DNA from: Saonia flava | Lineage (GTDB): Bacteria > Bacteroidota > Bacteroidia > Flavobacteriales > Flavobacteriaceae | DNA: 64,000 nt | Assembly: GCF_011927795.1 (NCBI RefSeq) | Contig: NZ_JAATJJ010000001.1 | Coordinates: 372,001-436,000, forward strand | Direction: 5' to 3' | In this document: positions 24,082 through 42,761 of the stretch, piece by piece | How positions within the stretch are numbered: position 1 is the stretch's first letter | Layout of the letters: each line of letters begins with the position of its first letter | Program-made: the position numbers and the translations under genes | Notes under the pieces: model-generated | Database searches by the model: none | What the model was told of the DNA's origin: nothing | What the model saw: only the letters and a program-made list of their open reading frames with translations

Positions 24082-24780
24082 TTATGATGGTGTTTGTTCT
24101 ACATCTGATTCTATTTTACCGTCCACTAAGGTAATTACACGCCTTGCTTTTCTAATTACACGTTGATCATGTGTTGAGAATAAAAAAGTAATTTTCTCTT
24201 CTTTATTAAGTTTTGCCATGATATCCAGCAAATTAGCCGCAGATTTTGAATCTAAATTTGCCGTAGGTTCATCCGCTAGTATAATTTTAGGTTTAGAAGC
24301 CAAGGCTCTGGCAACCGCTACACGTTGTTGTTGTCCTCCAGATAATTCACCAGGTCTACTATTTATTTTATCCTTAAGCCCAACTTCTTCCAACAAGGCC
24401 AATACACGTTTTTCACGCTCGGTTTTGGGCATATTTTGCAACTGCAAAACGAAGCCAACATTTTCTTTAGCTGTAAGTACGGGAATCAAATTAAAGGATT
24501 GAAATACAAACCCAATATTGTGCAATCTAAAATCTATCAACTTGTTTTCCGATAGCTTTGTTATTTCAACACCATCTATAAAAACTGTACCTTCTGTAGG
24601 TTCATCCAACCCTCCCATCATATTCAATAAGGTAGACTTTCCCGAACCGGAAGGTCCAACCAATGCCACGAACTCTCCTTCTTCTATATGTACGTGCACA
24701 TCTTGAACCGCATGAACCGGAATTGTTTTTGGGTTGAATGTTTTACTTACATTATGCGCATCTATTATAGTTTTTGCCAT
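24082..24780 (-). CDS. ABC transporter ATP-binding protein (MacB/LolD type)
   Basis: The 232 residues have Walker A VGPSGSGKSTLLN, Q-loop FVFQSFNLIPVLTAKENV, signature ELSGGQQQRVAVARALA, Walker B IILADEPTANLDS and switch His FSTHDQRV. The LTAxENV segment and length are typical of the MacB/LolD/FtsE group, which power mechanotransmission permeases rather than import. It is flanked by its two FtsX-type permeases and a barrel gene. Confidence 0.93.
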   Translation of the reverse strand: MAKTIIDAHNVSKTFNPKTIPVHAVQDVHVHIEEGEFVALVGPSGSGKSTLLNMMGGLDEPTEGTVFIDGVEITKLSENKLIDFRLHNIGFVFQSFNLIPVLTAKENVGFVLQLQNMPKTEREKRVLALLEEVGLKDKINSRPGELSGGQQQRVAVARALASKPKIILADEPTANLDSKSAANLLDIMAKLNKEEKITFLFSTHDQRVIRKARRVITLVDGKIESDVEQTPS

Positions 24781-24784
24781 AATT

Positions 24785-26002
24785 CTAAATTTTACGTATT
24801 GCTTCCGATGGATTTAATTGTAGCGCCTTATAAGCTGGATAAATAGCAGATAATATGGCTGTTACCAAACACATGGTCACAATAATTACATATTTTTCTT
24901 GATCCAAAGCTGGATAGATTATGGAACTGAATCCATAGGATGCCAATCCTTCAGAAAACATAGATAAATTAATTCCTGTTTTTCCCAGTGTTGTTACCGT
25001 TAACCATCCAGACAACAGGCCAATTGGAGTACCAATTAGTGTTAAATAGAAGGTTTCTAACATGATCATAATAAATATTTTTCGCTTGTTCAACCCAATG
25101 GCCATCAACATTCCCAATTCCCTAATTCGTTCTAATACAGACATTAACATAGTGTTGATTATGCCAAAAGTTAAGGCCAACAGAATGATTCCGCTAATGA
25201 TATATGTATAGAGGTTAAACGATTCTATAATCATACTTAACTCTGGTGAAAGTTCTTTCCAATCTTCAATTTTTCCTCTCGGCACTATTCCAACACTGAA
25301 CTTTTTAATGGTTTCCAATTGTTCTTCATTTTTAACTAAAATGGCCATTTCATTGCTTTCTGAAGGCTTTAATTCCAATAGTTCCCGTAAATGTTTTTGG
25401 TGCACATATACATTTACTTCATCCAATGAAATGTTTTTAGATCTGTAAATCCCTCCTATTCTAAAAGCTCCCGAAATAATCTCTGAGTTAATGTTTGTGA
25501 AGGTCAATACCACTTTACTTTTCAATTTAACTTTGAGTTTTTTGGCTAGTTTTGCCCCAATAAGGATTTCATTTTCTTTACCCGATTCAAAATAGGTTCC
25601 TTCTCTTACATACTCATTAAGTCTTATTTGGGTAATTTCTGAAGCGGGATTGATTCCGTAAATTTTTACACCACTTGCCGTTGTTGGTGAAGTGATCATT
25701 CCAGATGAAATAACACGCGAACTAACCGAAGCAATTCGACCATCAGATTCTAATTGCCTTGCTTTTTCATCTGTATTGGTAATGGTAAATTTTGAGTTGT
25801 TCTCCTCTCCAAAAGTTGGATGGTGAATTTGAATATGAGACAATTGCCTGTAAACCGATTCATTAATATTGTTTTTGTACATACCCCAAGAAAAGGACAA
25901 AATGAAAATCCCTGCCCAAATACCGATAATAATAGAACTTATTACTACTAAGCTTCTGGATTTATTCCGCCAAATATTTCTCCATGCAATTTGAAACAAC
26001 AT
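24785..26002 (-). CDS. FtsX/MacB-type ABC permease
   Basis: One N-terminal TM helix (SLVVISSIIIGIWAGIFILSFSWG) is followed by a ~220-residue extracytoplasmic MacB-PCD-like domain (IRLNEYVREGTYFESGKENEILIGAKLAKKLKVK). Three C-terminal helices follow with the FtsX motif ERIRELGMLMAIGLNKRKIFIMIMLE. It is paralogous to the next permease upstream, so the pair likely forms a heterodimer as in LolCE. Gap to the ATPase is 4 bp. Confidence 0.92.
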   Translation of the reverse strand: MLFQIAWRNIWRNKSRSLVVISSIIIGIWAGIFILSFSWGMYKNNINESVYRQLSHIQIHHPTFGEENNSKFTITNTDEKARQLESDGRIASVSSRVISSGMITSPTTASGVKIYGINPASEITQIRLNEYVREGTYFESGKENEILIGAKLAKKLKVKLKSKVVLTFTNINSEIISGAFRIGGIYRSKNISLDEVNVYVHQKHLRELLELKPSESNEMAILVKNEEQLETIKKFSVGIVPRGKIEDWKELSPELSMIIESFNLYTYIISGIILLALTFGIINTMLMSVLERIRELGMLMAIGLNKRKIFIMIMLETFYLTLIGTPIGLLSGWLTVTTLGKTGINLSMFSEGLASYGFSSIIYPALDQEKYVIIVTMCLVTAILSAIYPAYKALQLNPSEAIRKI

Positions 26003-26004
26003 AA

Positions 26005-27225
26005 CTAACTATTTATAGCTTCAACAGGTTTTAACTTCATCACTTTATAACCTGGATAAAAGGCCAATAGCGTAGATAATATTAAAACGATTAAAGTTTG
26101 GGTAATAAAAATTTTCTCGTGGCTAGAAAAGTATATGATCGATTCTATACCATAATCTTCGTATACTTCTTTTAAATCTCCTGTTAAATGAATTGGGTAT
26201 ACGGTAAACCATTTTACGACTAACATTCCTCCTATAATACCCGTAAAACAACCTAATAAGGAAATCATAATGGACTCTAATAACAACACAAAGGCCAGTA
26301 ATCTTTTTTTCATACCAATGGCAATCAAGATTCCCAGTTCGTGTTTTCTTTCAAAAACCATCATTAATAAGGTGCCAAACAATCCAAAGGAAATAATGAA
26401 ATACAAGATTCCGATAATAATATAATGCCCTGTACTGTCTGCCTCTATAAATTGGTCCATTTCAGGCATCATTTCTTTCCAACTCATTACTTCATAAGCT
26501 TCAGAAGCTATAGACCCTTGTAAAGAGTGTTTTAATTTTTTTAAATTAGTTGCCTTATCCAACATCACCGAAACTGATGTTAAACGATTCTCTGCTCCGT
26601 GCATGTACTGTGATTGCTGTATGGGCATATACACCACATTGTTATTTAATTCTAGCGCACCGAGTTTAATAAGACCTTTTACCCTAAATTTGGCCGCAGC
26701 ACTACTGGCATGATAACCTTGGCCCAACAACACCAACGTGTCATTTACTTTTAGTTTTAATTGTGAGGCCAGCCCTTCCCCTAAAACAACCGCATTGTCG
26801 TTAACACTTTCAATGTACTCGCCATCTACTATTTTTTCGTGAAGATTATTAACTTCTCTTTCTTTAATGGGATCTATTCCTAAAACCAAAACACCTTTGG
26901 TTTTATCTGCCCAAGATGCCAATGCAAATGTTTGTAAACGAGGCATAATATGAGTAACCTCTGGATTTTTAAGCAATTCTTGATGTAATTTATCGTCTTC
27001 CTCGAAAGTATTATCTATAGATTGCTCGTCCCAATAGCCTTTTTTGTGGATTTGTAGATACCCAGAAGAATAACTCACCACATTATGAATCATGTTATCG
27101 TAAACACCATCGGTCAAAGAACGAAAGACGATTGCCAATAGCACAGCAAAAAACACTGAAGTTGCCGTTATAATGGTTCTACGCTTATTGCGCCATATAT
27201 TTAACCATGCTAATTTTAGTAACAT
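26005..27225 (-). CDS. FtsX/MacB-type ABC permease
   Basis: It has the same architecture as the 24785 permease: N-terminal helix IITATSVFFAVLLAIVFRSLT, periplasmic domain to about residue 280, and three helices with FERKHELGILIAIGMKKRLLAFVLLLES. The ending YPGYKVMKLKPVEAI is the family's usual cytoplasmic tail. It is separated from its partner by 2 bp. Together with the LolA-like gene upstream this resembles a lipoprotein- or lipid-release machine. Confidence 0.92.
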   Translation of the reverse strand: MLLKLAWLNIWRNKRRTIITATSVFFAVLLAIVFRSLTDGVYDNMIHNVVSYSSGYLQIHKKGYWDEQSIDNTFEEDDKLHQELLKNPEVTHIMPRLQTFALASWADKTKGVLVLGIDPIKEREVNNLHEKIVDGEYIESVNDNAVVLGEGLASQLKLKVNDTLVLLGQGYHASSAAAKFRVKGLIKLGALELNNNVVYMPIQQSQYMHGAENRLTSVSVMLDKATNLKKLKHSLQGSIASEAYEVMSWKEMMPEMDQFIEADSTGHYIIIGILYFIISFGLFGTLLMMVFERKHELGILIAIGMKKRLLAFVLLLESIMISLLGCFTGIIGGMLVVKWFTVYPIHLTGDLKEVYEDYGIESIIYFSSHEKIFITQTLIVLILSTLLAFYPGYKVMKLKPVEAINS

Positions 27226-27286
27226 TATTAAAAGAGATTGGTTACATCTATTATTTAGCAGTTTAATTCTGCGTTATTGTTTCTAT

Positions 27287-28003
27287 TTACCCCAAATTCA
27301 CATTAAACATATAGCCCACTAAAGCGGTCAATCCCATTGCAGTTGTACCCCAAAATGTAATTCTTAAGATTGCTTTCCAAATATTGGAACCTCCTGTTTT
27401 TGCCGCTAAAGCCCCTAAAAGTATAAGAAAGAACAGGGCAAAACCATATAGAGAGTACTCCATACTTTCTAATGGAAGAAATAAGGTCACCAAAAATGGC
27501 AACAACCCTCCTATTGTAAATGCTGACCCAGAAGCAAATGCGGCCTGGATAGGTTTCGCTTGACTGATTTCATTTATTCCCAGCTCATCCCTAATATGTG
27601 CTCCCAAAGCATCTGTTTCTGTAAGTTCTTTTGCAACTACCATTGCAGTTTCTTTTTTAAGCCCCCTTTTTTCGTAAATCTGTGCCAATCGCTGTAATTC
27701 AATTTCTGGCATTTCTTTTAACTCCACTATTTCTCTTTCAATATCGGCCTTTTCCACATCAGTTTGCGAACTAACAGAAACGTATTCACCAGCTGCCATG
27801 GATAATGCACCGGCTACCAAACCAGCCAAAGTGGCTAAAATAATTGGCTCTCTTAAATTGCTTGCCGCAGCAACACCAATTGCAAGACTTGCAGTTGATA
27901 AAATTCCATCATTTGCCCCCAAAACTGCTGCTCGTAGCCAATTGCTTCTTTGAATATAATGCGGATCCAAATAATTATCTAATTCATCTATTTTTTCTGT
28001 CAT
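27287..28003 (-). CDS. VIT1/CCC1-family metal (Fe/Mn) transporter
   Basis: The 238 residues start with HYIQRSNWLRAAVLGANDGILSTASLAIGVA, the family's first-helix signature. Next come MAAGEYVSVSSQTDVEKADIEREI and the cytoplasmic metal-binding helix region (EIELQRLAQIYEKRGLKKETAMVVAKELTE), then three more TM segments. VIT1/CCC1 proteins move Fe2+ or Mn2+ out of the cytosol. Its presence between a LolA-like gene and ABC permeases is unusual. The gap to the permease is 61 bp, so the genes are probably co-transcribed. Confidence 0.92.
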   Translation of the reverse strand: MTEKIDELDNYLDPHYIQRSNWLRAAVLGANDGILSTASLAIGVAAASNLREPIILATLAGLVAGALSMAAGEYVSVSSQTDVEKADIEREIVELKEMPEIELQRLAQIYEKRGLKKETAMVVAKELTETDALGAHIRDELGINEISQAKPIQAAFASGSAFTIGGLLPFLVTLFLPLESMEYSLYGFALFFLILLGALAAKTGGSNIWKAILRITFWGTTAMGLTALVGYMFNVNLG

Positions 28004-28034
28004 CTATTCTATTTGGTTTATTTTATACGTTGTA

Positions 28035-28805
28035 TTATTTTAATTGTTTCATGTTTCTTGTCGTAAAGAAATTATCGTTAATAGGTCTATCAAATTCAAT
28101 ATCATTGTAAATGATTACCGTACTATTTCCCTCTTTGTCAACAGGAAACATTTCAATTTTAGATGTTATTTTTCTGCCACCTACTTCCTTTACGTCACTT
28201 GAATTCATGATGTTTACCAGTTCGCCATCCTCATCGTAGAATTCGGCTTTTAACTGTAAAAAATCAGTGGAATCAATCCAAACCACTACTTTTTCCCATA
28301 CAATTGCTGCGGATTGTTTTGGTATCATTTCAATTTTATAACAGTTTTTTTCTAAAATGGATTCTTCCCCCAATATTTTATGGTCATAATCAGAAACAGA
28401 AGAGGCTTCTTTCACTAAATCATCATTGGTAAAATCTGTTCCCATCCAACTTTGGGACATCATAGAAGGTGGCAATTTAATGTTTCGCTCAATGGCAGGT
28501 ATCCAGTTCCAAACCTCTTTTATTCGCTTTAAAAACACGGTTCCTTTTTCTCTGGCCGGACCGGTAACCAATATCATTGAATAATCATCACCTTTGGTCC
28601 AGGCTTTCATATTCATTTCTCTGTTCCATGTAGGCCTGATTATTTTTATGGTTATGTTTGCCAATGACGTTTTACCTCGCATATTATCGTCAGCTTTCCT
28701 TACAATCTCTTTTGCTGAAAGGCTGTGTTGGGAGTACATTAAAGTAAATGGCAGTATGCAAATAGCAATGCCAATAATAAATCGCACCAATTGTCCTTTA
28801 TTCAT
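28035..28805 (-). CDS. LolA-like outer-membrane lipoprotein-sorting family protein (PF17131 type)
   Basis: A signal peptide (IIGIAICILPFTLMYSQ) is followed by SAKEIVRKADDNMRGKTSLANITIKI. The family signatures WNREMNMKAWTKG, GPAREKGTVFLKRIKEVWNWIPAIERNIKLPPSMM and WMGTDFTNDDLV complete the match. The fold is the half-open barrel that carries acyl chains through the periplasm. Such proteins commonly accompany MMPL or FtsX-type permeases and an outer-membrane barrel, as here. It is the first gene of the operon that runs down to 22928. Confidence 0.9.
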   Translation of the reverse strand: MNKGQLVRFIIGIAICILPFTLMYSQHSLSAKEIVRKADDNMRGKTSLANITIKIIRPTWNREMNMKAWTKGDDYSMILVTGPAREKGTVFLKRIKEVWNWIPAIERNIKLPPSMMSQSWMGTDFTNDDLVKEASSVSDYDHKILGEESILEKNCYKIEMIPKQSAAIVWEKVVVWIDSTDFLQLKAEFYDEDGELVNIMNSSDVKEVGGRKITSKIEMFPVDKEGNSTVIIYNDIEFDRPINDNFFTTRNMKQLK

Positions 28806-30415: not shown

Positions 30416-30727
30416 CTATTCCTCTACTTTTGAACTTCCTCCATTGCCACTATCCTGCCGTTCCTTAAAATAGAATCCGATGATAAACCCCAAAGGACCC
30501 GATAGTATCGAGGAGACCGTAGTCAACAGGTCTTTATAATCATTGGTCTCAAAATCATCGGTGGCATACCCAATAATGAAGGTGACGAATATGACACAGA
30601 AAAAAAGCACTACAAAAACCATGGCCAATACTCCCCTATTCTTTTCCCGCTTTTCATCCGCACCTTGTTTTATTACAATGTTTTCCAAGCGCTGTCCTAA
30701 ATTGGTTAAAATGTTGTCCGTACTCAT
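30416..30727 (-). CDS. small two-TM membrane protein
   Basis: The 103 residues have two hydrophobic segments (VLAMVFVVLFFCVIFVTFIIGY and SSILSGPLGFIIGFYF), a basic N-terminal cytoplasmic region and an acidic tail (KVEE). The second helix with GPLGFIIGFYFKERQ resembles small phage-holin-like or TMEM-type proteins; no family is assigned. It is the last gene of the patatin/FAD-oxidase cluster, 2 bp after the 63-residue gene. Confidence 0.7.
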   Translation of the reverse strand: MSTDNILTNLGQRLENIVIKQGADEKREKNRGVLAMVFVVLFFCVIFVTFIIGYATDDFETNDYKDLLTTVSSILSGPLGFIIGFYFKERQDSGNGGSSKVEE

Positions 30728-30729
30728 GT

Positions 30730-30921
30730 TTATTTTTTTTGGATTTTATAGGTGGGATACTCACGTTCCAATTCCCTTTTTAGGGTGGCTTCCATTCCAT
30801 CGATTTCTTTCTCGTCCGGGGTTACTAGGTCTTTGTCTTTATTGAGTTCTATAATCCGTTCCAATATTTTCTTGGTCAGTTTTAACTCATATTCCAGTTC
30901 TAATCTTGATTTTTTCAACAT
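30730..30921 (-). CDS. 63-residue charged helical protein
   Basis: MLKKSRLELEYELKLTKKIL continues as one long Lys/Glu-rich amphipathic helix and ends YPTYKIQKK. It lies 2 bp before the small membrane-protein gene and 21 bp after the FAD oxidase, so it is very likely translated from the same message. It may be an assembly partner; function unknown. Confidence 0.6.
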   Translation of the reverse strand: MLKKSRLELEYELKLTKKILERIIELNKDKDLVTPDEKEIDGMEATLKRELEREYPTYKIQKK

Positions 30922-30942
30922 GTTTTAGGGTTTATGGGGTTA

Positions 30943-32541
30943 CTACAATAGAGACTGAATCAGTTGTGGGTCACTAGGTTCCTTTTTGTCCAGTTTAACT
31001 TCCTTTAAAAAGGCATTGGAAAACAGGGTCTGCATATCGCCCGATAACAAGGAACAGCGGTATTTTCTCCAGGTGGTGGCGTCTGCACCATACATATGGT
31101 CCACCAATCCCGAGAACTTCCAATCTGCATTTTTGCCCCAGTGCAGTGTAAAGGGAATGTTGGCCTGTTGTAGGGCCTCAATCATTTTTTTGGATAGGTC
31201 ATTAAGTGTGATCAAATTCTTTTTTTCGTTCCAGCGCACCCCATCTATCTCTATCATACAGGTAGTGGGAAAACGGGCAAAGGATAAGGTGGCATCCGAC
31301 TTTTTAATAAATCGCATTGCAAAAATCCCGGGTACGGGACCTTCATCTATACTAACCTTGGATAGAATTTTTAAAGCTTTTTCCGCATCCGTATGGCTCA
31401 CCCCAAAGGAAATGGCAAAAGCAGGGCCTTGGTACGGGGCATCCCAAAAAGTTTCCGCCAAGGTGCCCGTGGAAACTTCATCAACCGTAGGTAAAATGGA
31501 GTTTTTAAGCAAATTAATAAAGACCGGAATGCTTGCTGGTATGCCAGACCCTATTTGCACCACCAGATTGATTAAATCCCTATAGAGCGATTTCTTAATC
31601 ACAGGAAAAGGGTCTGGATAGTTTAATTTATAGGGTTTCTTGTACATAAATTCTACCACATACTTTCCGTTATCCTTATACTGATTTACAAAAACCTTAA
31701 AATGATAGGGAATATTGGCCTCCCCATTGCCCTTTACCTCTTCGGGAATTCCATCAAAAGTTTTAAAATTTTGTTGTTGCGCCAGCTCTATGGCTTTGTC
31801 CTTTTTTAGTTCTTTTACGTACCTTTTTAACAGGAACAGGTTCTGGGCCTCTATTACCACTCCATGGATAAATCCAAAAGAGCCCAACCCCACCAGCGCA
31901 GCATTAAAGAGCCCATCATTTCGAATGACCCTAGACCTAAGTTTTTGTACAAAAACATCGTTTAAGGCGGGTTTAGAATGCCTTTCCAAATACACAATAT
32001 CCCCAGGATTGGGACCAATTATAAGGTTTAGCCCCACAACATAATCCTGTACGGAACCTACATTGATTGCAGACCCATGTACTCCCGTAGAAATACAGCC
32101 CGCAATGGTTTGTCCGTTACTGGCACCCGAGGCCTTTAGGGATTTCCCATGTCCCGCTAATTTCTCAGAAATTTCTTTTACCACATTGCCACACTGAAAA
32201 AGGAACAAATTCTCTGCCTGATACCCTGAAAGTGCATGCAAATCTTGGTTTCTAAACGAGAAATAGGTGTTCATATGCGCATTAAAGTGCATACGTTCTT
32301 TTTGGTGCGCTATCTTGGACATGGACCAAGCTGAACCATACGCCCTAAAACCCTCATTTTTGTTCTTTGCCTCTGTAATGAGGCTTTGTATTTCCTGTGC
32401 CGCATCATTGTAACGGTCCAAATCTGAGGGCATCAATGCAGGCGACTCCAACTTGGTTTTGTACAATAGCTTTAGAGGGAAAGGCCCATTGTTATGGAGC
32501 GTATCCCATTCTGTTAAGGTAAGTTTTGTTGTTTTGGCCAT
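30943..32541 (-). CDS. FAD-binding (VAO/PCMH-fold) oxidoreductase, cholesterol/aldono-lactone oxidase-like
   Basis: The 532 residues contain a FAD_binding_4 domain at about 40-240: FRAYGSAWSMS, CGNVVKEISEKLAGHGKSLKASGASNGQTIAGCISTGVHGSA. The Ser-Thr-Gly-x-His-Gly motif is the pyrophosphate loop. The C-terminal substrate domain holds FPTTCMIEIDGVRW and IPFTLHWGKNADW. No signal peptide is visible. Relatives oxidise sterols, polyols or aldonolactones with O2. The neighbouring patatin-like gene suggests a lipid-derived substrate, but this is inference. Gap to the lipoprotein gene upstream is 11 bp. Confidence 0.85.
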   Translation of the reverse strand: MAKTTKLTLTEWDTLHNNGPFPLKLLYKTKLESPALMPSDLDRYNDAAQEIQSLITEAKNKNEGFRAYGSAWSMSKIAHQKERMHFNAHMNTYFSFRNQDLHALSGYQAENLFLFQCGNVVKEISEKLAGHGKSLKASGASNGQTIAGCISTGVHGSAINVGSVQDYVVGLNLIIGPNPGDIVYLERHSKPALNDVFVQKLRSRVIRNDGLFNAALVGLGSFGFIHGVVIEAQNLFLLKRYVKELKKDKAIELAQQQNFKTFDGIPEEVKGNGEANIPYHFKVFVNQYKDNGKYVVEFMYKKPYKLNYPDPFPVIKKSLYRDLINLVVQIGSGIPASIPVFINLLKNSILPTVDEVSTGTLAETFWDAPYQGPAFAISFGVSHTDAEKALKILSKVSIDEGPVPGIFAMRFIKKSDATLSFARFPTTCMIEIDGVRWNEKKNLITLNDLSKKMIEALQQANIPFTLHWGKNADWKFSGLVDHMYGADATTWRKYRCSLLSGDMQTLFSNAFLKEVKLDKKEPSDPQLIQSLL

Positions 32542-32552
32542 TTTACTGGGTT

Positions 32553-32909
32553 TTAATCTTTCATGCAGACATACTTAATTTTCACTTTTCGCTTACGGCC
32601 AAAAGTAACCGCGCTCAACAATAGGGCTCCGAAGGTATTTCTATACTCTACGGTGTGCAGTTTGCCCGAAGGACATAAATCTGTTGACTTAATGAGATAG
32701 CTAAAGTCTTTGTCGGCTACCCCAATGGTAATCACAGTATCCAATTCTGTAACTTCATAGGGACGGTAATAATCGTCACGTACATGGGGAACGGCAGGCT
32801 CGGGCGTTCCTACGGTGCTTACTAGACGTACCGAGTAACAGGATTGAAACAAGAGCAGCACCAAAAACGCCAATACTAACAGAGGTATTAGGTATTTTTT
32901 AAACTTCAT
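32553..32909 (-). CDS. small hypothetical lipoprotein
   Basis: The 118 residues have a lipobox segment LVLLLFQSCYSVR (Cys 24), then a beta-rich body with VITIGVADKDFSYLIKSTDLCPSGKLHTVEYRN. Two further Cys occur near positions 88 and 115. No family recognised. It is followed after 11 bp by the FAD oxidase. A TACCCC palindrome lies 76-91 bp upstream. Confidence 0.65.
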   Translation of the reverse strand: MKFKKYLIPLLVLAFLVLLLFQSCYSVRLVSTVGTPEPAVPHVRDDYYRPYEVTELDTVITIGVADKDFSYLIKSTDLCPSGKLHTVEYRNTFGALLLSAVTFGRKRKVKIKYVCMKD

Positions 32910-32984
32910 ATAAATGGGTTTTGTGCCATATACCAGGGCATACAGCAGATTTTTATAATACTATATTGGGAGAACAGTGGAAAA

Positions 32985-33000
32985 ATACCCCTAGGGGCAT
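32985..33000. promoter_or_regulatory. near-perfect palindrome ATACCCCTAGGGGCAT
   Basis: The core CCCCTAGGGG is perfect, with one mismatch in the outer arms. It is 76-91 bp upstream of the lipoprotein start at 32909. The TACCCCT heptamer matches those at 1932 and 34730. A weak counterpart of the 23-bp shared element (AATACTTTTGGTTC) lies nearby at about 33037-33050. Confidence 0.4.
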
Positions 33001-33183
33001 TCTTACTAACTAAAAAATCGAGGGAGGGTACTACCTAATACTTTTGGTTCTAAAATACAACGTATCTTAATGTACGAGCATATATAATGTATATCTTGTA
33101 AGAAATAGTGTACGTTTGGTGCTTTTACTTATATTTATAGAACTGATATTGTGATGTTTATATATTTAAAATAATAATCTTAC

Positions 33184-34392
33184 CTAAATCCCCCAACTGG
33201 TCCATCTATCCATCCCATCCTGATACCATTTGTCCCCTTTGATAAAAAACAGATCGTTGTTTCTTTCTACCTTAAACTCTATGGGTTGGTTATAGAGTTG
33301 CCCATCCTTCCATGCCGTAAAGCAGTCCATCAAGGCAAGTACCTCTTCATCTTTGGTTAAATCCATGTCCATAGCATATAATTCTTTAACCAAAGGGATG
33401 ACCTCTTCTGCTGTTTGGGTATCAAAATGTATTAATGGGGATAACCTAATAATAGCATCGTTCGTTAGCTTGTCTGTTGTTGCTTTTAGGAACATCATGG
33501 CTATATAATTGGCCGTATCTGGCGGTTGGTACAATATGGTTTTCGCTTGATTTAATACGGTGGCAGAAAAAAACTTGGACTGGGGTTTTAGTTTAGAAAA
33601 GACCAGCTTTTTTCTTCGGTATTTTTGCGCTATCTGTTTCCATTTCCAAAACCTCTTTTTATCCTCCATGGACATTAAAGAATTACTGGTTCCAAGGGAA
33701 ATCATGCGTATATCCTTTAGGTCTACCCCTGTCTTATACGCTTCTATGATGCCTGCCAAGATGGGGTTGTTAAATCCACCAAGTGCGCCATCCCATAACT
33801 CGTAAAAAATTTCGCTTTCCTTGGCCAAAAATCTCGCAGGGAAATCAAAATACTGTACAGGTGCATTGGAGGAACCGTTAATGGCCTGTGTGAGCCTTAC
33901 CGAATCATAACCCGTATTGCCAGAGGTGTAGGACTTAAAAAATTTGGCGCGGTTATTCAACGCATCGTAGGTGCATACCGCAATTTTAAGGGATTCCTTC
34001 CCTATTTCTTTTGGCAGTTCCGCCATTTGGAACTTGTCTATTTTAGGAAATAGGCTCTCAAAGGCTTCTTTTTTCTTTTTGGAACTGTATTTTGGACCCA
34101 ACCCCAACCCTAATGTTCTTAGGTAGTCCACAGGAAAAAAGCGGTCACTAAAGGAGTTCTTGTGGAAAATCTTTTCTCTATTCTCCTTTTCTTTAAACAG
34201 GGCTATGGCTTCTTCTATAGTATAATCTTCAGCAAGAGCGGCTAAAACAATGCTCCCTCCAGAATTGGCAATGACCAAATCGAACTTTTTAAGAATATCA
34301 CGCCCCTTACTGTTCCCATACCGGTCTTTTAGGGTAAGTAGCTGTATAATGGCCCAACTCCCTCCCCCATCAAGTGATAAAATGTTGTACAT
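33184..34392 (-). CDS. patatin-like phospholipase-fold protein
   Basis: The 402 residues begin with LSLDGGGSWAIIQLL (glycine-rich oxyanion loop 8-11), and the nucleophile elbow is LVIANSGGSIVLAAL (Ser 44). The first residue of the usual GxSxG is Ala 42. The catalytic Asp is Asp 201 in WDGALGGFNNP. The residue after DGGG, normally Arg, is Ser-Trp here. So the dyad is intact but both signature loops are variant. No signal peptide is seen; the likely action is acyl-lipid hydrolysis on the cytoplasmic face. It precedes the lipoprotein/FAD oxidase genes by 274 bp. The 23-bp shared element lies in its promoter. Confidence 0.88.
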   Translation of the reverse strand: MYNILSLDGGGSWAIIQLLTLKDRYGNSKGRDILKKFDLVIANSGGSIVLAALAEDYTIEEAIALFKEKENREKIFHKNSFSDRFFPVDYLRTLGLGLGPKYSSKKKKEAFESLFPKIDKFQMAELPKEIGKESLKIAVCTYDALNNRAKFFKSYTSGNTGYDSVRLTQAINGSSNAPVQYFDFPARFLAKESEIFYELWDGALGGFNNPILAGIIEAYKTGVDLKDIRMISLGTSNSLMSMEDKKRFWKWKQIAQKYRRKKLVFSKLKPQSKFFSATVLNQAKTILYQPPDTANYIAMMFLKATTDKLTNDAIIRLSPLIHFDTQTAEEVIPLVKELYAMDMDLTKDEEVLALMDCFTAWKDGQLYNQPIEFKVERNNDLFFIKGDKWYQDGMDRWTSWGI

Positions 34393-34776: not shown

Positions 34777-35220
34777 ATGAAAAAAAGTAGATCAAACTTT
34801 CTAATAATGCTAACACTCGTTTTGTTAGCGCTGTCTGCCTGTACAAGAGCAACAGAAGACCCAAACAGTGAATTTAGTATACCACCCACTATTGAAGTAG
34901 TATTACCAGATGATAACAGTATTTTCTATACAAGCGAAGGTCCAAACAGGCAAGCAGATTTACACTTTATAGGGAGAGACGATGTAACGGTAGACTGGGT
35001 ATCTATAACGGTAATCAATAGTAGAGATCAAGAAGTGTACTATGATAAGGACATAACAAGGACTACCTCTACATCGTTTGAAATGTTCAGAAATTTTAGT
35101 ACAGAAGCAGCAGATACCTATACCGTAATATTCGAAGTATCCGATACCGCTGAAAACACTTTGGAAGCGCGTAGAACTATTATTTTTGAAGATAGGGTTG
35201 AATTGGATACCGATTCCTAG
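34777..35220 (+). CDS. DUF4625-like lipoprotein with Ig-like fold
   Basis: LVLLALSACTR places the lipobox Cys at 22. The body (PPTIEVVLPDDNSIFYTSE, DDVTVDWVSITVINSRDQEVYY, TYTVIFEVSDTAENTLEAR) is a single beta-sandwich of the type found in DUF4625 proteins. It is followed by a terminator hairpin and the TPR kinase gene. It may be an envelope sensor or binding partner for that kinase. Confidence 0.7.
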   Translation: MKKSRSNFLIMLTLVLLALSACTRATEDPNSEFSIPPTIEVVLPDDNSIFYTSEGPNRQADLHFIGRDDVTVDWVSITVINSRDQEVYYDKDITRTTSTSFEMFRNFSTEAADTYTVIFEVSDTAENTLEARRTIIFEDRVELDTDS

Positions 35221-35233
35221 GATAAGTAATGGC

Positions 35234-35275
35234 AACACATCTGTTTTAAAATAGATGTGTTATCTTTCTTTTTAA
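35234..35275 (+). terminator. rho-independent-type terminator after the 34777 gene
   Basis: Perfect 9-bp stem AACACATCT/AGATGTGTT (35234-35242 with 35253-35261), then a T-rich tail ATCTTTCTTTTTAA. The in-frame ATG at 35257 lies inside the stem, which argues for the later kinase start at 35296. Confidence 0.75.
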
Positions 35276-35295
35276 TAAATGACAGATTGATTGGA

Positions 35296-37215
35296 ATGAG
35301 ACTATTTTACACATTATTGGCTTTATTATTTTATATGACCGTAACGGCACAGACGGGTAAAATAATAGACAGCCTTAAAATAGAACTCACCAAACAACAA
35401 GAGGATACGATTAGGGCCCAGGTTTTAAACGACCTATCTTACTATTATTTATATCAAAACACGGATACGGCACTACTCTATGGAAGAAAAACCTACACCT
35501 TTGCCAATACAATAGGCTATCATAAGGTAAGGGCCAAGTCCAAACTATACATGGGCAATGCTTTTTTGTTCTCTGACCGTGTGGATTCTGCCCAGGTATA
35601 TTACAATAGAGCATTGGAAATTTCCAATGAACATGATCTTGATAAATCTGCCATATATTCCTCCTTGGGCATGTTTTATAAAAGTACGGGAGCCTACGAA
35701 AAAGCTACGGATATTTATTATAAGGGCATTGCGGACGATGAAAATACAGGAAACGAATATGGAAAGTTCATTAAGTTGAACAACCTTTCCAATGTCTATG
35801 GTATATTGGAGAACTATGAAAAATCTACTTCCCTGTTAAAAGAGGCGGTTGCCATTTCTGAAAAAAGTGAAAACCCAAACATAAAATATGCGTTGGGCAC
35901 TATTTTAAACGGCATTGGTAGTCTCTATATACAGGTAAATAATTTTGATGAGGCCATCCTATATTTTAACCGTTCCCTAGAGGCCAATCTAGCTTCGGAT
36001 AATGAAAAGGAAATAGCGAGAAACTATCAAAACCTAGGTGCTGTTTTTGAAAAGAAAAACCAGTACCAAAAATCATTGGAATACCTAAACAAAGCGTTCT
36101 CCATAAGGGAAAAGCTAGGGAATAAAAAAGAACTGTCTGAAACCCATTTTCAGTTGGGAAGTACCTACGGTAAGCTTTTAAACACCTCTAAATCCGAGTT
36201 TCATTTTAAAAGTGCCCTTGCATTGGCAAAGGAAATAAAGGACAAACCCCTCATCGCTGAAATTTACTTGACCCAAAGTAATACCTATGAGGATTGGAAC
36301 AAGGCCCAAAAAGCACTGGCAAGCTATAAAGCATATAGTTCTTATAGAGATAGTATAGTACAGTCTGAGAGTCTTACGAACATTTCCGAAATTGAAACCA
36401 AATATGAAACGGCAAAAAAGGACAAGGAAATTTTGGAACAACGATTTGAAATTGAACAGACAAGCAATACCTTAAAAAGAAGAAACACCTTGTTATATTA
36501 CTTGTTGGGAGCTTTGGTCCTCTTATGGTTGGTGTTTAGGCAACGCCAAAAAAGGAAGAACCAAGAAATTACAACCCTTAAAAGGGAACATCAGATAAAA
36601 ACGTTGGAATCCCTTATCCAAGGTGAAGAAAAAGAGCGTTTTAGAATAGCAAAGGAATTGCACGATGGTGTTAACGGTGATTTATCTGCCATAAAGTTTA
36701 AACTTACTTCCTTGTTGGAAAAGAACAATAAAATCATTAATGAGGCCATATCCATGATCGATGATTCCTGTAAGCAGGTAAGGGCAATTTCCCACAACCT
36801 GATACCCCCATCATTGGAAAATTTTAATGTATCGGAAGCGTTGGCGGAATATTGTGAGAATGCAAATTCCATTCATGAGCCAGACATCTTCTTTCAACAC
36901 ATGGGAAGCGACATAAAAATTTCTAAAAATGCCGAAATCAATATTTTTAGAATTGCCCAAGAATTGGTGGCAAATGCCTTAAAACATGCCCAGGCCACTT
37001 TAATCAATGTACAATTAAGCTGCAGGGACAACGAAATTCAGCTTACTGTGGAGGACAATGGCATTGGTTTTAATGTGGAGGTGGAAAACACCCATGGCAT
37101 TGGGTTAAAGAACATTAATTCCAGAGTGGAGTACCTAAAAGCGGATAAGGACATGATTTCCAACAAAGAAGGTACTTCCTATACCATAACTATGGATAAA
37201 GACACCCTATCATGA
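35296..37215 (+). CDS. TPR-containing sensor histidine kinase (HisKA_3/NarX-like)
   Basis: The start at 35296 gives a clean signal peptide (MRLFYTLLALLFYMTVTAQ); an in-frame ATG at 35257 falls in a terminator stem. Residues about 25-370 are periplasmic TPR repeats (YEKATDIYYKGIAD, YEKSTSLLKEAVAIS, FDEAILYFNRSLE, YQKSLEYLNKAFS). A TM helix near 405 (LLYYLLGALVLLWLVF) precedes HisKA_3, with RFRIAKELHDGVNGDLSAIKF (phosphoacceptor His 456). The HATPase domain shows FRIAQELVANALKHAQA and GIGLKNINSRVEYL. The stop overlaps the regulator start by 4 bp. Confidence 0.93.
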   Translation: MRLFYTLLALLFYMTVTAQTGKIIDSLKIELTKQQEDTIRAQVLNDLSYYYLYQNTDTALLYGRKTYTFANTIGYHKVRAKSKLYMGNAFLFSDRVDSAQVYYNRALEISNEHDLDKSAIYSSLGMFYKSTGAYEKATDIYYKGIADDENTGNEYGKFIKLNNLSNVYGILENYEKSTSLLKEAVAISEKSENPNIKYALGTILNGIGSLYIQVNNFDEAILYFNRSLEANLASDNEKEIARNYQNLGAVFEKKNQYQKSLEYLNKAFSIREKLGNKKELSETHFQLGSTYGKLLNTSKSEFHFKSALALAKEIKDKPLIAEIYLTQSNTYEDWNKAQKALASYKAYSSYRDSIVQSESLTNISEIETKYETAKKDKEILEQRFEIEQTSNTLKRRNTLLYYLLGALVLLWLVFRQRQKRKNQEITTLKREHQIKTLESLIQGEEKERFRIAKELHDGVNGDLSAIKFKLTSLLEKNNKIINEAISMIDDSCKQVRAISHNLIPPSLENFNVSEALAEYCENANSIHEPDIFFQHMGSDIKISKNAEINIFRIAQELVANALKHAQATLINVQLSCRDNEIQLTVEDNGIGFNVEVENTHGIGLKNINSRVEYLKADKDMISNKEGTSYTITMDKDTLS

Positions 37216-37850
37216 GTTTAAAAATTGCCATTACAGATGATCACCAAATGGTTTTGGAAGGCGTAGTTTCCATGCTACAGAGTGTGGATGAAATAGCTGT
37301 TGTGGGTACGTATAGCTCCGCCCAGCATACTCTGGAAAATATTGGGAACGATGAACCCGATGTTCTTTTATTGGATGTAAACCTGCCAGATATAAATGGA
37401 ATAGATCTAAGCAAAAAGCTTCTTAAAAAGTACCCGGACCTAAAAATCATTGCTTTGACCAATTTTGAGGATATTTCTTTCGTAAAGCGAATGCTAAAAA
37501 ATGGCGTTAATGGCTATCTATTAAAAAATACGGATAAAATTGAGCTGTTAAAGGCCATAAAAACAGTACTTGCCGGGGAGTTGTTTTTACAGAGTACTAT
37601 CCAAAAGAAACTATTAAGTCAATCCCACGATAAACAAGTATTTAACAATGGGCTAGAGCCCAATTTAACCCGGCGTGAGCTAGATGTTCTAAAGGCCATT
37701 TCTGAAGAACTGACAACTCAGCAAATCTCTGAAAAACTATTTATAAGCCCCAAAACAGTAGAGACCCATAGAATGAACATTATGAGCAAATTAGGGGCAA
37801 AAAATAGTGTCGGGATTATTAAAATTGCCATGGAAAAGGAATTGATTTAA
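37212..37850 (+). CDS. NarL/FixJ (LuxR-type) response regulator
   Basis: Receiver with DD 9-10, phosphoacceptor Asp 55 in VLLLDVNLPDINGID, Thr in IIALTNFED and Lys in GYLLKNTDK. A LuxR-type helix-turn-helix follows at about 148-210: LTRRELDVLKAISEELTTQQ, then ISEKLFISPKTVETHRMNIM. It is coupled to the TPR kinase by ATGA. TACCC-type palindromes at the promoters of 34777, 32909 and possibly 1881 fit the heptamer style of this regulator family. Confidence 0.93.
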   Translation: MSLKIAITDDHQMVLEGVVSMLQSVDEIAVVGTYSSAQHTLENIGNDEPDVLLLDVNLPDINGIDLSKKLLKKYPDLKIIALTNFEDISFVKRMLKNGVNGYLLKNTDKIELLKAIKTVLAGELFLQSTIQKKLLSQSHDKQVFNNGLEPNLTRRELDVLKAISEELTTQQISEKLFISPKTVETHRMNIMSKLGAKNSVGIIKIAMEKELI

Positions 37851-41855: not shown

Positions 41856-42761
41856 ATGTGGATGTATTTAGGCCTTTTGGCAGCTCTTTTTTTAGGATTA
41901 CACAACCTATGTAAAAAACATGCAGTACAGGGAAATGAGGTTTTTCCAGTGCTTTTGGGTACAATTACTTCGGGTTTTTTATTACTTCTTCCCTTCTTTA
42001 TTGGGTCCCTCTATTTTCCAGAATACACCAAACAAATAGGATTTCATATCACCAAAATTCCATGGAAAACCCATGGTTTTATTTTTATAAAATCTATGAT
42101 AATGACCGCATCATGGGTTTTAGCCTACCAAGCGTTAAAACACTTGCCCATAACCATTGTTACTCCAATACGTTCGGCAGGTCCATTTTTTACCTTCATC
42201 GGTGCCATTTTAATTTATCAAGAAAAGCCTAATTTTTTACAGTGGATTGGTTTTTTCCTTATTATTTTCTCTGTAATGTTATATTCTAGAATAGGCAAAA
42301 AAGAAGGAATTCATTTTAAGAGCAATAAATGGATATATGCCATTATTGCTGCCACATTTTTAGGGGCTTCCAGTGGTTTGTATGACAAGTTTTTAATACA
42401 GAACGTAGCGTTGAACCCCCAAACCTTACAATTTTGGTTTTGTTGGTATACCATACTGATCTTACTGGTTGTCTTATCCGTACTATGGTTTCCCAATTCT
42501 GAAAAACGAAAAAAATTTAAATGGCGTTGGACCATTCTTGCCGTTGGGGTTTTGTTACAAACAGCAGATTATTTTTATTTTAAGGCCTTACAGGACCCAG
42601 ATGCCTTAATTATGTTACTATCCGCTATAAAACGAAGTCAAATACTGATTGCCGTCCTCATTGGCGGATTTGTCTTTAAAGAAAAAAATAAGCGTAAAAA
42701 ATTAGTGCCTTTGCTCGGTATAATGATTGGCGTATTTCTGATTTTATATTCAAATACATAG
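41856..42761 (+). CDS. EamA/DMT-superfamily transporter
   Basis: About ten TM helices in two EamA halves (LGLLAALFLGLHNLCKKHAV..., IYAIIAATFLGASSGLYDKFLI...), with the typical PITIVTPIRSAGPFFTFIGAILIYQEKP signature ending the first half. It is 121 bp downstream of the oxidoreductase gene, in the same direction. It plausibly moves the product of the periplasmic reactions across the inner membrane; direction and substrate unknown. Confidence 0.87.
   Translation: MWMYLGLLAALFLGLHNLCKKHAVQGNEVFPVLLGTITSGFLLLLPFFIGSLYFPEYTKQIGFHITKIPWKTHGFIFIKSMIMTASWVLAYQALKHLPITIVTPIRSAGPFFTFIGAILIYQEKPNFLQWIGFFLIIFSVMLYSRIGKKEGIHFKSNKWIYAIIAATFLGASSGLYDKFLIQNVALNPQTLQFWFCWYTILILLVVLSVLWFPNSEKRKKFKWRWTILAVGVLLQTADYFYFKALQDPDALIMLLSAIKRSQILIAVLIGGFVFKEKNKRKKLVPLLGIMIGVFLILYSNT

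What the first reader, a model, noticed from the sequence alone, without database searches (positions are those of the whole stretch)
30416..34392. Undescribed patatin / lipoprotein / FAD oxidase / two-microprotein cluster
A patatin with variant signature loops (ANSGG elbow; DGGG not followed by Arg-Gly) heads a run with a lipoprotein, a VAO-type FAD oxidase, a 63-residue charged helix and a 103-residue two-TM protein. The spacings are 274, 11, 21 and 2 bp. A lipoprotein and a periplasmic-TPR kinase/regulator pair are divergent from it. Lipid hydrolysis plus oxidation under envelope control is a coherent but unreported combination as far as I can judge.
Basis: inference. Interest (0 to 1): 0.6.

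Follow-up and report, generated by a model that had tools for sequence, protein, structure and literature searches.

The report
Lipoprotein–flavin oxidase pair beside unrelated genes
The five neighbouring genes are real but are not one system: a small lipoprotein gene and a flavin-oxidase gene form a pair that stays together across the Bacteroidota and some neighbouring groups, while the lipase gene beside them is a separate, possibly phage-defence-type gene that happens to lie next door.

Summary
All five genes, their coordinates and the 274/11/21/2 bp gaps are confirmed. The proposed unit is not.

(1) Lipoprotein and FAD oxidase are a genuine gene pair. A lipoprotein gene lies directly upstream, same strand, in 77 of the 80 best named oxidase loci, mostly Bacteroidota plus Balneolaceae and Melioribacteraceae; the other three are cut by contig ends. 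In a phylum sample it is 6 of 8, with one contig edge and one real exception. The lipoprotein is a diverged relative of lambda Bor. The oxidase has a VAO fold, is aldonolactone/alditol-oxidase-like, and lacks a signal peptide. Four paper searches that bear on the pair listed no description of it.

(2) The 63-aa helix and 103-aa two-TM genes are a second pair, next to the oxidase in a few relatives and beside unrelated genes in another.

(3) The patatin is independent: 9 orthologues in 397 family genomes, none of the other eight near the oxidase. It resembles CBASS phospholipases; three of the nine loci carry restriction, Piwi, SIR2 or DUF488/DuOB genes nearby.

Lipid hydrolysis plus oxidation under envelope control is unsupported. 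Substrate and lipoprotein role remain unknown.

The parts
32553..32909 (-). Small lipoprotein (118 aa, lipobox Cys24), diverged relative of lambda Bor; first gene of the conserved pair
   Evidence: Cys24 and Cys79 invariant and Cys115 in 90% or more of 57 sequences; Lambda_Bor matches 21 of 57 at E<=0.01, best 2e-9, window copy itself only 16.1 bits against cut-off 25
30943..32541 (-). FAD oxidase/dehydrogenase of the VAO fold, 532 aa, no signal peptide; second gene of the conserved pair
   Evidence: FAD_binding_4 in 53 of 53 sequences, ALO (D-arabinono-1,4-lactone oxidase) in 7 of 53; model pLDDT 91.7, best fold matches L-galactono-1,4-lactone dehydrogenase, alditol oxidase, DprE1
30730..30921 (-). 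63-aa charged helical protein, accessory pair member
   Evidence: next to the 103-aa gene in every genome or locus where either was found
30416..30727 (-). 103-aa protein with two hydrophobic, presumably transmembrane, segments (by eye); accessory pair member
33184..34392 (-). Patatin-like phospholipase of CBASS-effector type; a neighbour, not part of the oxidase unit
   Evidence: (PADLOC phospholipase effector 4e-29; NCBIfam CBASS_lipase 74.3 bits, cut-off 200)
34777..37850 (+). Divergent lipoprotein, TPR histidine kinase and LuxR-type response regulator; no evidence of a link to the pair

Best explanation
The run is three modules side by side. Core: a two-gene operon-like unit, Bor-like lipoprotein then VAO-type flavoenzyme. 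The enzyme (no signal peptide, so most likely cytosolic) probably binds FAD non-covalently and oxidises a small hydroxy substrate of the sugar-lactone or polyol kind, passing electrons to oxygen or to a membrane carrier (inferred from fold and motifs; not shown). The lipoprotein, exported and membrane-anchored with a probable disulphide, is its envelope-side partner (the coupling is shown by gene order; its action is not shown; my guess is handling of substrate or product at the envelope). Second module: the helix/two-TM pair, a portable membrane accessory. Third: the patatin, an orphan CBASS-type phospholipase that is inherited separately.
For: Lipoprotein directly upstream, same strand, in 77 of 80 named loci; the other 3 hold only 25, 203 and 54 bp upstream of the oxidase frame (the 80 are the best of 529 relatives). 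Median gap 6 bp over 77 measurable pairs, window included, L090 left out because its oxidase frame runs off the contig. Family sample: 16 of 16 oxidase loci in 15 genomes. Phylum sample: 6 of 8. The two proteins' identity matrices correlate (r=0.91, 0 of 2000 permutations reach it, 43 loci), though shared species history contributes. Fold: E 2e-22 to L-galactono-1,4-lactone dehydrogenase; H467-W468-G469 invariant and K470 nearly so in 53 sequences; Trp72, invariant, aligns with a Leu of the dehydrogenase, where covalent-FAD members have His (recalled). No hydrophobic N-terminus in 53 of 53. Module independence.
Against: One genome (G205) has a distant oxidase with no lipoprotein upstream. Nothing here shows a substrate, an electron acceptor, co-transcription or a physical interaction. 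Cytosolic enzyme and exported lipoprotein are in different compartments if both are located as predicted, which makes a direct partnership awkward. 13 of 53 oxidases have an internal stretch of high hydrophobicity, so membrane contact is not excluded. The enzyme misses the curated cut-offs of the lactone-oxidase families. The sugar context is thin: Gfo/Idh-like or (named by eye) DUF1080-like neighbours in 3 of the 79 other loci scanned, plus a Gfo/Idh-like gene in the window.
Confidence: 0.6

Rival explanations
1. One reading: one five-gene system in which the patatin releases fatty acids and the oxidase oxidises them under envelope control.
For: Same strand and short gaps. A different, ordinary patatin lies 1.4 kb from the oxidase in a genome of the same genus (L057/L140 = G108) and another 8 kb away in L131. 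Two phosphatidylserine-decarboxylase-like genes follow the oxidase in L069 and L073.
Against: 8 of 8 other orthologues of this patatin lie away from all four other genes. Patatins were found by profile in 2 of 80 oxidase loci, both on the opposite strand (one of them, L140, had itself gone into the profile). 5 patatins in this 3.8 Mb genome make a few chance neighbours likely. The oxidase resembles sugar-lactone/polyol oxidases more than lipid oxidases, although cholesterol oxidase is among lower-ranked fold matches.
Confidence: 0.04
2. The oxidase-lipoprotein pair is a component of anti-phage or inter-bacterial conflict systems, with variable effectors next to it.
For: Single loci have SLATT/DUF4231, CHAT, Endonuclease_NS, amidase, M15 peptidase, subtilase, DyP_N, PS decarboxylase and TPR-S neighbours, a TIR protein matching ThsB (L070) and, by eye, nSTAND- and MBL-like ones.
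Against: A near/far comparison in 51 loci with PADLOC models gave no clear difference: 10 protein names among the 25 shown of 38 matched families for 102 near genes, 8 names in 17 families for 88 far genes; 8 of 10 conflict-looking neighbours matched no PADLOC model at 1e-10. Further hits of those neighbour families, apart from the same gene order in close relatives, lie mostly 4.9-9.4 kb away. The most frequent extra partner is a secreted-looking protein of unknown family (11 loci).
Confidence: 0.12
3. Toxin-immunity pair: the oxidase is a delivered peroxide-making toxin and the lipoprotein its immunity protein.
For: Tight two-gene linkage; lipoprotein immunity proteins are known for periplasmic toxins (recalled).
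Against: Lipoprotein gene first in 77 of 77 measured pairs; both genes diverge in parallel over loci from three phyla, which fits a shared cellular job better than immunity turnover (inference); no export or injection marker was seen on the oxidase, but secretion systems were not searched for.
Confidence: 0.05

Closest known systems
L-galactono-1,4-lactone dehydrogenase / alditol oxidase / D-arabinono-1,4-lactone oxidase (VAO family)
   Same: VAO fold, FAD_binding_4 domain, invariant HWG with near-invariant K (motif recalled as typical of aldonolactone oxidases), no His at the GSxxS site
   Different: Only 12-17% identical to the solved members listed; below all NCBIfam cut-offs; ALO domain detected in 7 of 53; gene coupled to a lipoprotein gene
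Lambda Bor lipoprotein family (PF06291)
   Same: Lipobox, about 115 aa, similar C-terminal region with conserved cysteines; 21 of 57 sequences match
   Different: Window copy below the family cut-off (16.1 of 25 bits); longer middle part in the flavobacterial branch; constant enzyme partner; model of middling confidence without a clear fold match
CBASS CapV / CapE-type phospholipases
   Same: Patatin core with Ser and the DG..NNP Asp motif; best solved relatives by sequence are a cUMP-AMP-activated phospholipase and CBASS patatins
   Different: 74.3 bits against cut-off 200; loops DGGGSW and ANSGG; no SMODS cyclase domain found in this genome

Membership tests
VAO / FAD_binding_4 superfamily | FAD_binding_4 domain above Pfam cut-off and VAO fold | tested here: met
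   30 bits against 26.4, 53 of 53 sequences at E<=0.001, Foldseek probability 1.00
Aldonolactone oxidase subfamilies (TIGR01677-01679, PF04030) | Score above curated cut-off | tested here: not met
   46.9 of 383.1, 44.9 of 396.8, 34.9 of 292.25 bits; ALO not found in the window copy, 7 of 53 sequences match
Aldonolactone oxidase subfamilies (TIGR01677-01679, PF04030) | Activity on sugar lactones or alditols | not testable with these tools
   needs purified enzyme
Lambda Bor (PF06291) | Score above Pfam cut-off | tested here: not met
   16.1 of 25 bits for the window copy; 21 of 57 sequences match at E<=0.01, best 2e-9
Lambda Bor (PF06291) | Bor-like fold | tested here: inconclusive
   no PDB match with E<=0.001 and best Z 3.6; no Bor structure was compared directly
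CBASS phospholipase (NF041079) | Score above equivalog cut-off | tested here: not met
   74.3 of 200 bits
CBASS phospholipase (NF041079) | Cognate CD-NTase (SMODS) gene | tested here: not met
   no PF18144 match in the genome (control genomes rang in 3 of 14); other cyclase families not tested
Patatin family (PF01734) | Catalytic Ser/Asp dyad | tested here: met
   Ser44 and Asp201 invariant in 9 of 9, aligned with CBASS patatins; activity not tested

The most novel reading that the evidence does not exclude
An undescribed, near-obligate two-gene module of the Bacteroidota and neighbouring phyla in which a Bor-like envelope lipoprotein and a cytosolic VAO flavoenzyme act as one unit across the cell envelope, sometimes extended by a secreted-looking protein of unknown family (11 loci) or by the helix/two-TM membrane pair.
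Probability: 0.5. Interest if true: 0.5.

Novelty: new variant of a known kind. Interest (0 to 1): 0.35.

Why it matters
It replaces a five-gene guess with a testable two-gene unit found in several classes and three phyla, gives a Bor-like lipoprotein a constant enzyme partner, and shows that the neighbouring patatin should be studied as a separate, possibly defence-related gene. A lipoprotein coupled to an apparently cytosolic flavoenzyme is odd enough to deserve a substrate screen.

Tried and rejected
Shared regulation: TACCCCTAGGGG upstream of the lipoprotein gene could be a NarL/LuxR-type site (motif recalled), but a loose version occurred upstream of 1 of 74 relatives' lipoprotein genes and the window count is at chance (2 against 1.64 expected). 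A Bacteroidetes-type promoter pattern gave 2 hits in 64 kb against 5.3 expected; neither is in front of the five genes, one (35160-35188) lies just before the kinase gene. Promoter-like sites were at chance (24 against 21.4); terminator-like sites were somewhat above it (11 against 5.9, sd 2.3), none placed so as to settle the operon.

Phage or plasmid origin: no oxidase match in phages, only two distant lactone oxidases on plasmids, no relatives of patatin or oxidase in viral contigs. Patatin on plasmids: three distant hits, two of them annotated CBASS phospholipase.

Conflict-system reading: near/far comparison gave no support. A CFA-synthase-like gene (named by eye) precedes the pair in 4 Mucilaginibacter loci only, so it was not used as evidence for lipids.

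Lipoprotein structure: mean pLDDT 77, no fold match with E<=0.001, best Z 3.6.

Literature: seven answered searches, seen as listings only, of which 35, 70, 73 and 90 bear on the pair; passages by search term in PMC12419801 and PMC7159879, neither of which mentions FAD or an oxidase by the terms tried. Absence from these is weak evidence of novelty.
Full report
What was checked. The five genes and spacings are as described, in a 3.8 Mb genome; the named contigs closest to its oxidase are Flavobacteriaceae such as Croceitalea, Allomuricauda, Croceivirga and Maribacter. Pfam confirms patatin and FAD_binding_4 and finds nothing above cut-off for the three small proteins.

Do the genes travel together? 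In a sample of 149 genomes of the same family, the patatin was found in 3 (E<=1e-15), the oxidase in 15 (E<=1e-15), the lipoprotein in 10 (E<=0.001), the two-TM protein in 3 and the helix in 3. All 11 lipoprotein hits lie beside an oxidase. The helix and two-TM genes are adjacent in all 3 genomes; two have the oxidase next to them, the third (G102) has no oxidase at E<=1e-15 and the pair follows unrelated genes. In G120 the lipoprotein, oxidase, helix and two-TM genes lie together, and the patatin is about 137 kb away.

The single-sequence lipoprotein search missed the five most distant oxidases, but reading 18 kb around the oxidase loci showed a lipoprotein gene directly upstream in 16 of 16 loci (15 genomes, window included); the five form a second sequence cluster alignable with the first.

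Wider survey. With a profile made from the 16 lipoproteins, a lipoprotein lies directly upstream on the same strand in 77 of 80; L094, L108 and L126 hold 25, 203 and 54 bp upstream of the oxidase frame and cannot be judged. Balneolaceae and Melioribacteraceae members belong to other phyla in the NCBI taxonomy. Some of the 80 are the same contigs as family-sample loci (for example L102 = G120, L140 = G108, judged from contig lengths), so the counts are not added. The gap has a median of 6 bp; negative values partly reflect over-long predicted starts. Helix and two-TM genes follow the oxidase in 3 of 80 (L062, L063, L102). A patatin was found by profile in 2 of 80 (L131 about 8 kb away, L140 1.4 kb away, both opposite strand); the L140 protein has ordinary patatin loops and is not the window's orthologue. 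Two further patatin-like genes lie outside that profile: a 734-aa protein in L134 by eye and a weak 551-aa hit in L075. In a phylum sample of 247 genomes the oxidase was in 8 (E<=1e-30); the lipoprotein adjoins 6 (the window among them), one is at a contig edge (G257), and G205 has a divergent gene, cysS by eye, instead. Bor-like proteins elsewhere in that sample score far lower (E 1e-7 to 9e-5, against 5.5e-15 or better beside an oxidase), so the pairing is specific.

What the pair is. Sequences of the lipoprotein family match Lambda_Bor in 21 of 57 cases; two cysteines are invariant and a third nearly so. The oxidase model is good (pLDDT 91.7) and matches L-galactono-1,4-lactone dehydrogenase best, then alditol oxidase and DprE1; the sequence profile agrees. 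Invariant residues include G69, W72, S73 and H467-W468-G469. That W72 stands where other members carry the covalent-FAD histidine, and that HWGK marks aldonolactone oxidases, is recalled, supported only by the alignment with the dehydrogenase. None of 53 has a hydrophobic N-terminus, while 45 of 57 lipoproteins do by the same measure; 13 of 53 oxidases have an internal hydrophobic stretch.

Context of the pair. Eleven loci (Chitinophagaceae, Mucilaginibacter, Chryseolinea and others) have a predicted frame of 323-507 aa abutting the oxidase, secreted-looking by eye, without a Pfam match in the one tested. Otherwise the flanks vary greatly. Several look like conflict genes, which raised the idea of a defence module; the near/far PADLOC comparison did not bear it out, and I keep it as a rival only. 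PADLOC output lists families, not distinct proteins, and only 25 of 38 near families were shown, so this test is coarse. The window's kinase and regulator are not recurrent: in a phmmer scan of 79 named loci a kinase-core relative lies within 4 kb of the oxidase in one (L123) and 4-10 kb away in three; a regulator relative lies within 4 kb in two and 4-10 kb away in three; the divergent lipoprotein has no relative there.

The patatin. A larger sample found 9 orthologues in 397 family genomes, all at 70-78% identity to the window copy (the window's own aside), with nothing weaker at E<=1e-40; the smaller sample showed nothing further at E<=1e-15. In the 8 others, none of the other four genes lies within about 8 kb. 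An EamA-type transporter gene is next to or a few genes from it in 5 of the 9 and 7.5 kb away in the window (41856-42761); it was not seen in L010, L159 and L161. Three of the 9 have defence-type neighbours among the genes I scanned: SIR2 + Piwi and SMEK + Piwi (L161), HNH + HpaII endonuclease (L157), DUF488 + DuOB (L158) (that the last two are defence-related is recalled and less sure). The neighbours in the other six loci were looked at by eye only, apart from those of the window. It resembles CBASS phospholipases, keeps Ser44 and Asp201 in 9 of 9, and this genome has no SMODS cyclase domain. I read it as an orphan CBASS-type effector; this is inference.

Verdict. The lasting result is a lipoprotein-oxidase pair of unknown purpose, of which the searches named in Tried and rejected listed no description.

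Noticed in passing
window 33184-34392; L161, L157, L158: Orphan CBASS-like patatin with altered oxyanion loop (DGGGSW) and elbow (ANSGG), patchy in the family, and in three of nine loci near SIR2/Piwi, SMEK/Piwi, HpaII or DUF488/DuOB genes.
   Followed up: partly
L112:11491-12834 and 10 other loci: Secreted-looking protein (predicted frames of 323-507 aa) abutting the oxidase in 11 loci; no Pfam match in the one tested.
   Followed up: partly
L061:8466-8977: Helix/two-TM pair follows unrelated lipoprotein-like and membrane genes, suggesting a portable membrane pair.
   Followed up: partly
L094:1771-5550: Oxidase followed by a membrane protein, a DyP-like peroxidase (DyP_N match) and a catalase-like protein (by eye): a possible peroxide-handling operon.
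   Followed up: no
L069:11808-14423: Two phosphatidylserine-decarboxylase-like genes directly after the oxidase in two Flavobacteriaceae (L069 by Pfam, L073 by similarity).
   Followed up: no
L123 (also L056), upstream of the lipoprotein gene: A kinase/regulator pair related to the window's lies directly upstream of the lipoprotein-oxidase pair in this one genome.
   Followed up: partly
window 24082-28805: Two FtsX-like permeases and an ABC ATPase (by eye) and a LolA-like protein (Pfam) form a possible lipoprotein- or MacB-type export cluster.
   Followed up: no
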